Positions 13,140 to 18,697 of a stretch of 64,000 bases of DNA are shown here, in pieces; the stretch's first letter is position 1, and each line of letters opens with the position of its first letter. Source of the stretch: Frankia alni ACN14a (GTDB taxonomy: Bacteria > Actinomycetota > Actinomycetes > Frankiales > Frankiaceae); the NCBI RefSeq assembly GCF_000058485.1, contig NC_008278.1:738962-802961 (forward strand), given 5' to 3'. The translations under genes were made by a program, and so were the position numbers. The notes beneath the pieces were generated by a model. That model saw nothing but the letters and a program-made list of their open reading frames with translations. It was not told the DNA's origin and did not search any database.

Positions 13140-14511
13140 GTGGGCGAAGCGGACTGAGTGTGCTCGGCGATGACCGGATCAAGGTGATCGGCCGGAGTGC
13201 GGTGACCAAATCGTTGCTTAGTGCACTTCGATCGAGCTTTCAATGGCTTGTGGACGTTCCTCGGCGCGTCGGATCAGGGCGGACCACGGTCACCGGAGTG
13301 GTTGATGCTGCTGTGGGCAGTGAAGCGCGTGGCGGATGGCATGCGGATGAGTCGGTGGTCCGAGGTTCACGCGGAGCTAGCAGCGGTCCTGGACGCAGGG
13401 CAGGGACGGGTGGGGACGGCGACGGATCAGGGGCACGGGAATGCCCGGTCGTCGCGCTACGTCACTCGCCACTGTGGGAGATCCGAGCGGGGACGCCAGC
13501 TGCCTGCCGATAGCTCCCAGCAGCGCTGGTGGCCGGACCAGGAGGATCCCGCTATCGGTCTTTCTGAGCCTGCGTTCGATCTCCTGCATAGCGGACAAAA
13601 ACGCGAGCAGTTTCTGCCGGTGCTGCGATCTTTCGTCGGCCAGTCGGCAAAATCACCTAACTTGTAGATCAACTTTTGGGAGATCGAAGCGGGTGTTATA
13701 CCGATCCGCCGCGACGTCTACAAGGGGTAACTAGTCAGGTACCTTGATGTCGGTGCCAGTCCGGACTGCTGCGGGCGCGTCCGCGGGTTGCTTGACCAGG
13801 CGGACGAGGACGTCGAACTGGCAACTAGGCCAAGATGCGAATGGATCCAAGCCCAACCGCCACCGACCAGTCAGCGCCGAACTCCACGTTGCTACGGAAG
13901 CGCCGCGACCGACGGATTCTATACTTTCTCCTCCTGCCGACGGCTTACCTTTCAAACGTGCAGCGTGGTCTCCTGGTGGTCTCCTGTCGTTCACCCTGTC
14001 TGGTTGGCCTGGTACGCAAGTCTCAATGGTCGTCGATGGCCGCTCGGGGATCCTCGTGAAGCACTTCGGGGTGTAGGACGCGAGCTGCCCACCCTAGCGT
14101 AAACTTGTCGGAGGTGAGCAATAAAAAGATCATTGGACTCGAGGTGGTCTCGATTTCGGGACGTACGAGTTCCTTGGCTGGAGTCTTATGGTTGAGCCTA
14201 GGAGGTAACGGGTGCATGCAAGAGATGTGTTCCGATGGGCACTTGGGGCTTCTCGTGCTCCGCCAACTGCGAAGTCGCTCAGGGGCTGGTCTTGCCTACC
14301 GCTCTCATACCTTGGCTTGAGAGTAGGTTTGTCGCGATGGTGCGGTCAGCCGCTACCTTCCAGCCACGCCCAGTACGGCTTCGACGACTCAGGGCCATCC
14401 GACGAAAGTTCCCCGGTGCCGCTCAATCCGCTAGCTCACCCAGCTTGCCAAGTTGGCTCCTAAGCGCAACCAGGACAAGCTATCGCTAACGCTGATCAAG
14501 ACATCGCAGGC
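13140..14511. other. Gene-poor left part of a lower-GC island
   Basis: No convincing complete gene. GC content drops visibly from about 13500 onward. An open frame at 13221-13667 (plus, 148 codons) has a plausible helical stretch (SPEWLMLLWAVKRVADGM) that could be a remnant, but it has no ribosome binding site or recognised family and its second half looks random. All other frames here are short and stop-rich. This looks like eroded or recently acquired DNA leading into the restriction-modification genes. Confidence 0.5.
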
Positions 14512-14525
14512 AAGGGGTGTATCCT

Positions 14526-15722
14526 ATGGCCAAGCTTGTAGCAGAACCGATAGTTCGAGCGGACCAAGATACAACGGAGACACAATTGTCTACACACGCA
14601 CCGAGCACTTCTCCACAAGAGCATTCGGTATCCGTTGTAGGATTTGACCAAGCTCGGGCCGCTAGCCCTCGTTCGGTGCGCACGATCATCGATCTTTTCT
14701 GTGGAGCAGGCGGAATGTCGCTCGGCTTCGTCCAGGCGGGTTTTTCACCCATCCTGGCCATCGACCATGATCAGCCGTCCATCGATACCCACCGCGCGAA
14801 TTTTCCAGGCGATTCGCTGTGCGTTGACATTCGAGACGTCAGCGACTTCCCGGCCGCTGACGTCGTAATAGGTGGTCCGCCTTGCCAAGGATTTAGTCGG
14901 CTAGGAAAGAAAGCAAAAAAAGAGCGTCTCGAAAACTATCTCTGGATGGATTTTATGCGATGCGTTGCCGCGTCGCAGCCTGCCGTATTTGTAATCGAGA
15001 ATGTTCCCGAATTTCTCAAAGATCCTGCTTTTCTCGGAGTCTCTCGGGAAGCAAAAAAACTTGGATACAAGCTGGTATTTGCTGTTCTTAATGCAGCCAA
15101 TTACGGGGTACCGCAAAGGCGACAGCGTACGATAGTGATTGGAAGCCGGATAGGTGAACCCGAGTTGCCGGCCCCCACTCACCAAGAGCCGCAAGAGCAG
15201 GCCGCTTTTTTTTCCGATCTCCCTCCCTGGCGTACAGTACGTGATGCCATTAGTGATCTACCACTGGAGCCGACTAATACGAATCTACACAATAGCAGGA
15301 ACGTCTCCGCCTTGTCGCTTGAGCGCTATCGCCATATCCCACCTGGTGGTAACCGGAAGAATCTTCCTCTGCATCTACAGCCTGACTGCTGGAAATATAA
15401 GGACCCCCGTGGCGGTGGAAGCACCGATCTGATGGGTCGATTGGAATGGGACGCTCCTTCTCTCACGATCAGGACCCAATTCCTAAAACCAGAGAAGGGC
15501 CGCTACCTCCACCCTGAAGCAGACAGATCGATAACTGTTCGCGAAGGTGCTCGGCTTCAGACCTTTCCAGACGATTTTCAGTTCGTAGGTAGCACCTTTC
15601 AGATCGTCAAGCAGATCGGGAACGCTGTACCCGTTGAGTTGGCCCGCCAAGTCGGGACCGAGATCTTTCGACACCTTGAAGTGCACGAAAATTCAATTGT
15701 GCGGCTAGAGGCGGCGGGTTAA
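14526..15722 (+). CDS. DNA (cytosine-5) methyltransferase
   Basis: 398 residues from ATG 14526, with AAGGGG eight bases upstream; a GTG at 14517 overlaps that site and is unlikely. The catalytic motifs are in order: motif I DLFCGAGGMSLGF, motif IV GGPPCQGFS with the catalytic Cys, motif VI ENV, motif VIII QRRQR, target-recognition region about 255-330, motif IX REGARLQTFPDDF and motif X GNAVPVELA. It transfers a methyl group from SAM to cytosine C5 in a specific site, probably protecting host DNA from the adjacent nuclease. Codon use is much less GC-rich than in flanking genes, so it is likely horizontally acquired. Its 3' end overlaps the opposing HNH gene by 18 bp. Confidence 0.95.
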   Translation: MAKLVAEPIVRADQDTTETQLSTHAPSTSPQEHSVSVVGFDQARAASPRSVRTIIDLFCGAGGMSLGFVQAGFSPILAIDHDQPSIDTHRANFPGDSLCVDIRDVSDFPAADVVIGGPPCQGFSRLGKKAKKERLENYLWMDFMRCVAASQPAVFVIENVPEFLKDPAFLGVSREAKKLGYKLVFAVLNAANYGVPQRRQRTIVIGSRIGEPELPAPTHQEPQEQAAFFSDLPPWRTVRDAISDLPLEPTNTNLHNSRNVSALSLERYRHIPPGGNRKNLPLHLQPDCWKYKDPRGGGSTDLMGRLEWDAPSLTIRTQFLKPEKGRYLHPEADRSITVREGARLQTFPDDFQFVGSTFQIVKQIGNAVPVELARQVGTEIFRHLEVHENSIVRLEAAG

Positions 15723-16410
15723 GTAAGTGATGATATCGCTGATTGTTTTCTCTTCAATGGCTGCTGCCGCGCGAATCTTTTCTGCTACCTCCCGAGGAAG
15801 CCTCAGGATAATCACGTCATCATACTTTTCAGGAAAAGCAAATGGACAATTTTCGCATGTCAGAAGAGTGCAGGATCCGCATGCTTGTCGTTTCTTCAAA
15901 TTGCATCGAGTGCAAAGCGTCTGGAGGTTCTCAGGTAAAGAAATTCCACCTCGTTCCGCCGGCACCTTGTGATCGCACTGTGGAAGCGTCAAATTTTGGT
16001 CGCGACCTACGGAGTCCTCGCAAATTTGACACTTCCAATGGTCGCGGTCATAAATTTCCAGCCGCCTCTTTGGTGCTACTTCATATCGTATCCGCTGAGG
16101 GCGGATAGGACCCTCTGAGCGTCGGACGTACCAATCATCGTTTGCGCCGCTTTTATCTCGGAATCTTTCGATTTCCCAACCGTACTCAGAGGCAATCTTT
16201 CTGATTCTTCGAGCATAATTTGATTTTCCGTATTTTTTTTCGATCTCGGAACGGTGGACGGGAACATTGAGAGGGAGCAGGTCGACAAGATCCTGAAGAT
16301 GTCGGGGAAGCGGGCGGTAAACGCTGGGATTAACGTCGTCCGCGCTACCATGTTCGAACAGATTAGGAGTCAGGACCGATCGCCCCCGCCGACTTCTTGC
16401 TTCGCGTCAT
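15705..16410 (-). pseudogene. HNH endonuclease (probable restriction enzyme), frameshifted near its start
   Basis: Translating the minus strand from 16406 to 15705 gives one uninterrupted HNH protein but with no ATG or GTG start. ATG 16410 is in another frame (MTRSKKSAGAIG...) that stops at 16363. Removing one base from the C5 run at 16383-16387 joins them into about 234 residues. Visible features: RRLEIYDRDHWKCQIC, DHKVPAERGG, ENLQTLCTRCN (HNH with two Cys pairs), a Cys-rich CGSCTLLTCENC knuckle, and a ribbon-helix-helix-like end (ILRLPREVAEKI...TISDIITYL). A TTG at 15992 would yield only the C-terminal 95 residues. Convergent overlap with the methyltransferase suggests a restriction partner. 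The shift may be real or a sequencing error. Confidence 0.75.
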
Positions 16411-16513: not shown

Positions 16514-16957
16514 ATGCGGCCGGCACCGGTACCGCCAAGCGATCCCGCGGTGTCGGCCCGGATGAGTCGCACCAGGGGGCGAGACACGCGCTGTGAGCTG
16601 GATCTGCGATCGGAGCTGCACAGGCGGGGGCTTCGCTACCGTGTGCACTATCCCGTGCCAGGACACCCCAGACGTCGGATCGACATCTCGTTCTGCAGAT
16701 TGAAGATCGCCGTCTTTGTTGACGGCTGCTTCTGGCATAGTTGCCCTATGCACGCCAGTTGGCCAGCTAGCAACGCCGAGTGGTGGGCCGAGAAGATCAA
16801 GTCCAATGTAGCTCGGGACCGCCAAACTGATGTATTTTTGACGGAGGCCGGTTGGACCGTTATTCGCGCATGGGAACACGAGAATTTCCTGGCCGTGGCC
16901 GACCGGATAGAAGAAGTCATCCTATCGAGGCGACGACCATTGATCCCGCCGTGTTAA
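16514..16957 (+). CDS. vsr: Very short patch repair endonuclease (Vsr)
   Basis: 147 residues from ATG 16514, with GAGG eight bases upstream; an in-frame ATG at 16478 has its site too close. Vsr signatures: MSRTRGRDTRCELDLRSEL, RIDISF with the metal-binding Asp, VDGCFWHSCPMH (zinc-coordinating Cys/His and catalytic His), W..KI..N..RD, and a C-terminal GWTVIRAWEHE. Vsr nicks at T:G mismatches formed when 5-methylcytosine deaminates, so it is typically linked to a cytosine-5 methyltransferase, as here. A small hairpin (CCTTCGG/CCGAAGG) lies about 10 bases before the ribosome binding site. Confidence 0.92.
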   Translation: MRPAPVPPSDPAVSARMSRTRGRDTRCELDLRSELHRRGLRYRVHYPVPGHPRRRIDISFCRLKIAVFVDGCFWHSCPMHASWPASNAEWWAEKIKSNVARDRQTDVFLTEAGWTVIRAWEHENFLAVADRIEEVILSRRRPLIPPC

Positions 16958-17422
16958 GCGGTAGGTGATCGGCCAGGTAGTATGACCGATGATTGCGCGG
17001 GAGAGTTGAGCGCGGGGTCGGGAGCTGACGCTCGCGAAGCGGGAGGAGATCTCTCGTGGGTTGGCGGCGGACCTCTCGATTAGGTGAGCGCGATGCGGCT
17101 GGACCGGAGCCAGTCGATCGTGAGCTGTGAAGTGAACCGCAATAGAGGGAACGGCGGACGCCGGGCGGTCGAGACCCAGACGCGCGCTGACGCTCAACGT
17201 CGCTGCCCGAAGATCTTAAGGTTTGTCGCGTCGCGGAAGTTGTACGACATGGTCGCTGCTCCGCCCACGGACGATCATTCTCCGCAGCAGGCGACGAGTA
17301 GCTTTTAGAAGGAGTTCGGGACGATGCGGCGATGCGTGCGTCCTACGAGACGGCCTACCAGAGGCGTGGCGAGTTGCATGCTTAGCTGATGCTCTGCGGT
17401 CGGGTCGGGCCGAGCGCGGCAG
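16958..17422. other. Spacer between vsr and the helicase remnant
   Basis: No supported gene; frames are interrupted. The last 120 bp hold short fragments in several frames that may be leftovers of the missing helicase N-terminus, but none shows a recognisable motif. Confidence 0.4.
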
Positions 17423-18697
17423 TTGCCTGCCGACGCAAGGCGACCCGTTCTGGTCACGACCTTCGTGCGCACACTCGCCGACGGCCTGAAGGCAAACCTG
17501 GCCTCGCTCGACGCGGTGACCGGCGCCGACACCGGCTCCTCGATCGAGGTCACCACGGTCGATGCGCTTGCCCACCGCATTGTGACCGAAGCCGAGGGAT
17601 CGGCTCCGAACGTGCTTCTTGACGAGGAGGTGCTGAACGGGCGGTGGATCGCCGCCGCGGCCGCCACCGATGTGACCTGTCCGCCGACCAGGCTCCGCCA
17701 GGAATGGGAGAACGTGATCCTGGCCAGAGGGGTACGGACGGTGGAGGACTACCTGTCCGTCTCCCGGGCGGGCTCGGCACAAGCCCTGACAAGGCGGCAG
17801 CGGCTGCGGGTCTGGGCGGCCGTCGAGCACTTCCTCGATCGGATGCAGACCGCCGGTGAACGGACCTTTTACCAGCTTGCGGACGATGCGGCGCGGTATG
17901 CCCGGGCCATGTCGGCCGGCGATCTGTTCCCGCATGTCGTCGTCGACGAGGCGCAGGACCTGCACCCCGCTCAGTGGCGGCTGCTCCGCGCGGTGGTGCC
18001 TGACGGCCCCAACGACCTGTTCATCGTGGGCGACGCGCACCAGCGGATCTACGACCATCGGGTTGCCCTGGCCACCATGGGCATCAACGTGCGTGGCCGG
18101 TCGCACCGCCTGAGGCTCAACTACCGGACCAGCGAGGAGATCCTCACCTGGGCCATCGCGCTGCTGGAGGGCCAGGTGATTGACGACCTCGATGGCGGTG
18201 TCGACGACCTGGCCGGATACCGCTCGGCGTTTCGTGGCACGCGGCCACCGACGATGCACGGATATCCGACGCCGGCCGCGGAGCTGGACGGACTGGTGTC
18301 GACGGTCCGCGGCTGGATCGAGGGCGGTGTCGAACCGTCCGCGATCGGCGTCGCGGCCCGCACCCGCAGGATGGCCGACGCCGCCGCGAGGGCTCTCGGC
18401 GACGCCGGGATCGAAGTCTGTTCTCTGGACCGCAGATGGCGTGGGGGTGTCGAGACCGGCACCATGCACCGTATGAAGGGTCTGGAGTATCGGGCGATGG
18501 CCGTCGTCGACGTGGGGACGCGCTCGGTGCCGTCCGTGCATGCCGTCACCCCGAAGACCGACGATCCGGAGCTACACGCCCAGGACACCCTGCGCGAGCT
18601 GTGTCTTCTGTACGTGGCATGTACCCGTGCCCGGGAGTTCCTCGCCGTCTCGTGGTCGGGTAGACCGAGCCCGTTTCTGACGTCCCTCGCGACCTGA
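17423..18697 (+). pseudogene. UvrD/Rep-type DNA helicase lacking the Walker A region
   Basis: 424 codons from a TTG. The frame begins mid-domain at PVLVTTFVRTLADGLKANL, a segment that normally follows the Q motif and Walker A (GxxGxGKT), both absent. Later SF1A motifs are intact: VVVDEAQDLHPAQWRLL (II), FIVGDAHQRIY (III), LNYRTSEEI (IV), TMHRMKGLEYRAMAVVDV (V), LLYVACTRAREFLAVSW (VI). Without Walker A it cannot hydrolyse ATP as a normal helicase. Stops at 17306 and 17387 close the frame upstream. GC content is back to normal, so this may be the chromosomal gene broken by insertion of the island rather than part of it. Confidence 0.75.

What the first reader, a model, noticed from the sequence alone, without database searches (positions are those of the whole stretch)
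16360..16410. One-base frameshift at a C5 run disables or hides the HNH nuclease start
The HNH frame is complete from 16406 to 15705 but lacks a start, while ATG 16410 opens another frame that stops at 16363. Dropping one base from the CCCCC run at 16383-16387 fuses them into a sensible ~234-residue nuclease. A homopolymer in a restriction gene could be phase-variable, a fixed null mutation leaving a solitary methyltransferase, or a sequencing error.
Basis: seen in the sequence. Interest (0 to 1): 0.6.

Follow-up and report, generated by a model that had tools for sequence, protein, structure and literature searches.

The report
Restriction nuclease gene with CTG start
A complete HNH restriction-nuclease gene next to its DNA methyltransferase and repair enzyme lacks a normal start codon, but its relatives point to a weak CTG start rather than a one-base slip in the flagged C5 run, so it is an ordinary restriction system whose nuclease is probably made poorly or not at all.

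Summary
The sequence facts are right. An HNH-nuclease frame (minus strand, 16406-15705) has no ATG, GTG or TTG before residue 128, and ATG 16410 opens a 15-codon frame that ends at 16363. The frameshift reading is not the best one. Two close homologues (61-62% identity; G028, a member of the same family, and Mesorhizobium) start 18 residues before the conserved LPxHL motif. In this window a CTG at 16373 lies 21 residues before that motif, whereas the proposed ATG-plus-frameshift start lies about 32 before it. The homologue's first residues, M-TDELF, line up with L(CTG)-TPNLF. On this reading the C5/G5 run is outside the gene, 9 nt before the CTG, where it could serve as its Shine-Dalgarno. Five-base C/G runs are common here (154 runs of five or more in 64 kb) and far below published phase-variation cut-offs (9 or more). 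The surroundings are a normal, probably horizontally acquired Type II system: C5 methyltransferase, convergent HNH nuclease and Vsr, as in relatives. The nuclease body is intact and not accelerated. Because CUG starts work at under 1% of AUG in E. coli, the nuclease is either very weakly expressed or recently silenced. A real one-base insertion or a sequencing error remains possible.

The parts
15705..16373 (-). HNH restriction endonuclease, proposed coding region from CTG 16373 to TAG 15707-15705 (222 codons)
   Evidence: Pfam HNH, PADLOC REase_II; homologues 61-62% identical over residues 22-219 and 22-209; start position from the homologues' N-termini. Start codon inferred.
16371..16373 (-). 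CTG codon proposed as the (weak or lost) start codon; aligns with ATG of the G028 homologue
   Evidence: MTDELF versus LTPNLF. Inference from few homologues.
16383..16390 (-). GGCGGGGG: the flagged C5/G5 run, here read as a Shine-Dalgarno-like element 9 nt before the CTG
   Evidence: Anti-SD pairing -9.0 kcal/mol against -5.6 before ATG 16410; 1.8% of local same-strand positions are as good, 12% of shuffles.
16363..16410 (-). Short frame ATG 16410 to TAA 16363 (MTRSKKSAGAIGPDS*), which would enter the HNH frame only with a one-base change; probably not the start of the gene
   Evidence: not present in homologues.
14526..15722 (+). C5-cytosine DNA methyltransferase (ATG 14526 with SD AAGGGG; GTG 14517 also possible), 3' end overlaps the HNH gene tail to tail by 18 bp
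   Evidence: Pfam PF00145 E 5e-68; TIGR00675; 80% identical to G028 and 64% to Mesorhizobium; only PF00145 match in the genome.
16514..16957 (+). Vsr-type mismatch endonuclease (ATG 16514; ATG 16478 also possible), divergent from the HNH gene
   Evidence: TIGR00632 E 4e-32, above cut-off; Pfam Vsr.

Best explanation
The element is a horizontally acquired Type II restriction-modification module: a C5 methyltransferase, a convergent HNH restriction nuclease and a Vsr repair nuclease. The nuclease gene has no frameshift. Its 5' end is at CTG 16373, where the closest homologue has ATG, and the G5 run lies just upstream in the Shine-Dalgarno position, outside the coding region. The methyltransferase would protect the host's sites, the nuclease would cut unmodified DNA, and Vsr would repair T:G mismatches left by deaminated 5-methylcytosine; all three roles are inferred from family membership. 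Because the start codon is CTG, the nuclease is either translated at a very low level (native weak start) or recently silenced by loss of its usual start codon, leaving an in effect solitary methyltransferase. Shown: gene order, domains, intact nuclease body, homologue N-termini. Inferred: use of CTG, expression level and activity.
For: Close homologues L004 and L027 begin 18 residues before LPxHL; CTG 16373 is 21 before, the frameshift start about 32. M-T-x-x-L-F of L004 matches L(CTG)-T-x-x-L-F. SD-like pairing is better before CTG than before ATG 16410. The predicted model has residues 1-17 at low confidence and a confident domain starting near residue 20, so nothing requires a longer N-terminus. 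The nuclease body is not accelerated: 13 substitutions unique to the window against 23 unique to G028, with Mesorhizobium as outgroup; NG86 dN about 0.41, dS about 2.8 and saturated. The same methyltransferase/HNH convergent order occurs in G028, Mesorhizobium and Chloroheliaceae, and with distant HNH relatives in Halorussus and Sphingomonas plasmids. Vsr is also nearby in G028 and Mesorhizobium and Sphingomonas.
Against: CUG is a very poor start: 0.024% of bacterial start codons and 0.86% of AUG efficiency in E. coli (PMC11497404); not enriched in a mycobacterial leadered selection, 0.03% (PMC4633059); AUG-to-CUG switches were 2 in 61,358 (PMC5622118). The N-terminal match is short and rests on few homologues; their first about 20 residues are poorly conserved, and the distant relatives have longer N-termini. 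DNA upstream is not alignable between homologues (z about 1). Some CTG within nine codons would occur by chance about 22% of the time, and the SD value arises in 12% of shuffles.
Confidence: 0.58

Rival explanations
1. The gene starts at ATG 16410 and a real one-base insertion in the G5 run has put the start out of frame: a fixed null mutation that leaves a solitary methyltransferase.
For: ATG 16410 lies close upstream and one base less would join the frames; restriction genes are often lost while the methyltransferase stays (general knowledge); a GAGG lies 12 nt upstream of that ATG. Distant relatives have longer N-termini.
Against: Close homologues have short N-termini with no MTRSKKSAG-like sequence; SD pairing is weaker and widely spaced; five-base runs are not hypermutable; some ATG within 50 bases is expected by chance.
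Confidence: 0.2
2. Sequencing or assembly error: either the run is really four bases or the start codon is misread, and the gene in the living strain is intact.
For: The only lesion in an otherwise intact, constrained gene is at its start; GC-rich runs are classic error sites (general knowledge).
Against: Single-contig assembly, 99.87% complete; homologue N-termini do not ask for a different run length. No reads available.
Confidence: 0.15
3. Phase variation: the C5 run changes length and switches the nuclease on and off.
For: A homopolymer lies near the start of a restriction gene.
Against: Five bases against a cut-off of 9 or more for poly-G/C in phasome work (PMC5953494); 154 such runs in 64 kb; run probably outside the coding region.
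Confidence: 0.02
4. Programmed +1 frameshifting or termination-reinitiation from the short ATG 16410 frame, which overlaps CTG 16373, controls nuclease synthesis.
For: The short frame ends at 16363, ten bases past the CTG, on the same strand.
Against: No slow codon or stop at the supposed slip site; no conserved leader frame in homologues.
Confidence: 0.03

Closest known systems
PADLOC REase_II PDLC03478 (a profile that fits the G028 homologue end to end, positions 1-219)
   Same: E 7e-86 over residues 22-219; same convergent C5 methyltransferase partner
   Different: G028 gene has ATG and an 18-residue N-terminus before LPxHL; the window gene has CTG and 21 residues
Mesorhizobium sp. LSHC420B00 methyltransferase/HNH/Vsr locus (L027)
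   Same: 62% identical HNH, 64% identical methyltransferase, Vsr divergent from HNH, same gene order
   Different: HNH has an ATG start, though without a clear SD directly before it
NgoMIV-type systems on Mycobacterium paragordonae and Rhodococcus antarcticus plasmids (C5 methyltransferase + NgoMIV nuclease + Vsr)
   Same: Methyltransferases about 47% identical and a Vsr gene adjacent
   Different: Nuclease is of the NgoMIV family, not HNH; shared recognition site not tested
Phase-variable restriction-modification genes (Neisseria, Campylobacter)
   Same: Homopolymer near the start of a restriction gene
   Different: Tract of 5 instead of 9 or more; no evidence of variation

Membership tests
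Type II restriction-modification system | DNA methyltransferase with complete catalytic domain | tested here: met
   PF00145 E 5e-68, TIGR00675 above cut-off
Type II restriction-modification system | Separate restriction nuclease gene adjacent to the methyltransferase | tested here: met
   HNH body complete, convergent with the methyltransferase as in relatives
Type II restriction-modification system | Both enzymes are made and act on the same DNA site | not testable with these tools
   Needs expression, methylome and cleavage assays; the nuclease has no ATG/GTG/TTG before residue 128 and a CTG at the homologous start, so its expression is in doubt. Filed as a Type II module by gene content; activity not claimed.
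Phase-variable gene (simple sequence repeat) | Poly-G/C tract of about 9 or more | tested here: not met
   Tract is 5; cut-off from PMC5953494
Frameshifted pseudogene | Homologues continue in frame through the proposed start across the lesion | tested here: not met
   Close homologues start downstream of the run, near the CTG-equivalent site; only three used, so not decisive
Solitary (orphan) C5 methyltransferase | No functional cognate nuclease | tested here: inconclusive
   Nuclease body intact and not accelerated, but start codon CTG; expression unknown
Vsr mismatch endonuclease | Full-length match to the family | tested here: met
   TIGR00632 E 4e-32, 111 bits against cut-off 97.85

The most novel reading that the evidence does not exclude
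The nuclease is genuinely translated from a CUG codon with a G-rich Shine-Dalgarno, used as a fixed dosage limiter that keeps a restriction enzyme far below its methyltransferase.
Probability: 0.2. Interest if true: 0.45.

Novelty: new member of a known kind. Interest (0 to 1): 0.22.

Why it matters
It corrects a likely misreading: an apparent frameshift that comes from counting only ATG/GTG/TTG as starts. It also marks a full-length nuclease that conventional start rules would truncate or mark as broken. If the CTG start is real, this is a rare case of a restriction enzyme limited by its start codon; if it is dead, it is a methyltransferase caught soon after losing its nuclease.

Tried and rejected
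The first genome-contig scan with the single protein found nothing. Phylum and class sampling found no further homologues beyond G028; the genus of Mesorhizobium (146 genomes) and the Chloroheliaceae phylum (251) added none. Viral contigs gave only generic HNH matches. DNA alignment of upstream regions is not significant. Promoter and terminator scans of the 5' region found nothing. The structure model is of modest confidence (pLDDT 66, pTM 0.44), so no fold search was run. Paper searches for CUG-started restriction genes and for Frankia HNH systems gave nothing direct. Phase variation and programmed frameshifting were considered and set aside as above.

Full report
Observation. On the minus strand a 233-codon frame runs from 16406 to TAG 15707-15705, longer than any frame in 1000 shuffles of the stretch (longest 187). 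It has no ATG, GTG or TTG before TTG 15992, which lies inside the HNH domain. ATG 16410 opens another frame that ends at TAA 16365-16363. The run at 16383-16387 is C5 on the plus strand, G5 on the gene's strand. Such runs are ordinary in this 73% GC window: 154 of five or more.

What is there. The frame is an HNH nuclease (PF01844 E 2e-8) and matches PADLOC's REase_II profile PDLC03478 at E 7e-86. It lies tail to tail with a C5 methyltransferase (14526-15722, +; PF00145 E 5e-68) and divergent from a Vsr gene (16514-16957, +; TIGR00632 E 4e-32). The methyltransferase and nuclease have 53% and 49% GC against 73% for the window. Among 35 genomes of the order only this one and G028 carry the nuclease at high score and the methyltransferase. 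I therefore read it as a horizontally acquired module. The methyltransferase is the only PF00145 protein in the genome.

Relatives. Two close nuclease homologues were found: L004 in G028 (61%) and L027 in Mesorhizobium sp. LSHC420B00 (62%); a more distant one is L028 in a Chloroheliaceae MAG (37%). All three have a convergent C5 methyltransferase, and G028 and Mesorhizobium also have Vsr nearby. More distant HNH relatives with convergent methyltransferases occur on Halorussus and Sphingomonas plasmids, the latter with Vsr.

The start. The G028 gene starts MTDELFP... and the Mesorhizobium gene MGKHNRG..., each 18 residues before the conserved LPxHL motif. In the window frame, CTG 16373 starts LTPNLFEHG..., 21 residues before the motif, and aligns with MTDELF. 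The proposed ATG 16410 with a one-base change would give about 32 residues and a MTRSKKSAG sequence found in no homologue. Pairing to the anti-Shine-Dalgarno is -9.0 kcal/mol before the CTG, with the G5 run 9 nt upstream, and -5.6 before ATG 16410. Caveats: the first 20 residues are poorly conserved, distant relatives have longer N-termini, upstream DNA does not align, the SD value arises in 12% of shuffles, and a CTG within nine codons has a 22% chance. I therefore prefer the CTG position, at moderate confidence.

Consequence. CUG is a poor start: 0.024% of bacterial starts and 0.86% of AUG in E. coli (PMC11497404); not enriched in mycobacteria (PMC4633059); AUG-to-CUG switches are extremely rare (PMC5622118). 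So the nuclease is probably either very weakly made or recently silenced by start-codon loss. The protein body shows no relaxation: 13 substitutions unique to the window against 23 unique to G028 with Mesorhizobium as outgroup, dN 0.41 against a saturated dS of about 2.8. This argues that any loss is recent, but cannot tell recent loss from a native weak start.

Alternatives. A real one-base insertion (0.2) and a sequencing error (0.15) remain open because no reads or second strain were available. Phase variation is very unlikely: tract of 5 against a cut-off of 9 or more (PMC5953494). Programmed frameshifting has no slip-site features and no conserved leader.

Identity of the genome. The assembly is one contig of 7,497,934 bases. 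From memory this is the size of Frankia alni ACN14a; a paper gives 7.5 Mbp for that strain (PMC4117964). This is an inference. In a REBASE-based survey of ACN14a, the type II enzyme named as highly expressed was FRAAL0249 (PMC6769113); whether the present gene was listed is not stated in the text read.

Verdict. Observation confirmed; frameshift interpretation only partly supported. An ordinary Type II module with an unusual start codon; interest low to moderate.

Noticed in passing
16998-17250 (+): Between Vsr and the helicase lies a broken stretch resembling an IS30-type transposase N-terminus in shifting frames (Pfam HTH_38 E 0.0025, below cut-off; read by eye).
   Followed up: partly
17423-18697 (+): UvrD-like helicase that lacks its N-terminal part: the PF00580 match begins at profile position 48 and the frame starts at TTG; probably truncated at the island edge.
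   Followed up: partly
15705-15815 (-): The C-terminus of the HNH protein (VIILRLPREVAEKIRAAAAIEEKTISDIITYLTRRL) looks like a ribbon-helix-helix segment (Pfam Arc E 0.011, RHH_5 E 0.017, below cut-offs; helices predicted there).
   Followed up: partly
14526-15722 (+): The methyltransferase is about 47% identical to methyltransferases paired with NgoMIV-family nucleases on Mycobacterium and Rhodococcus plasmids; a shared recognition site is possible but untested.
   Followed up: partly
L027:3860-3950: In Mesorhizobium a clear AAGGAG lies about 60 bases before the HNH ATG, not at SD distance from it, so that homologue's start is not fully certain either.
   Followed up: no
13210-14520: Low-GC flank upstream of the methyltransferase with no convincing long gene in any frame; possibly decayed mobile DNA.
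   Followed up: no
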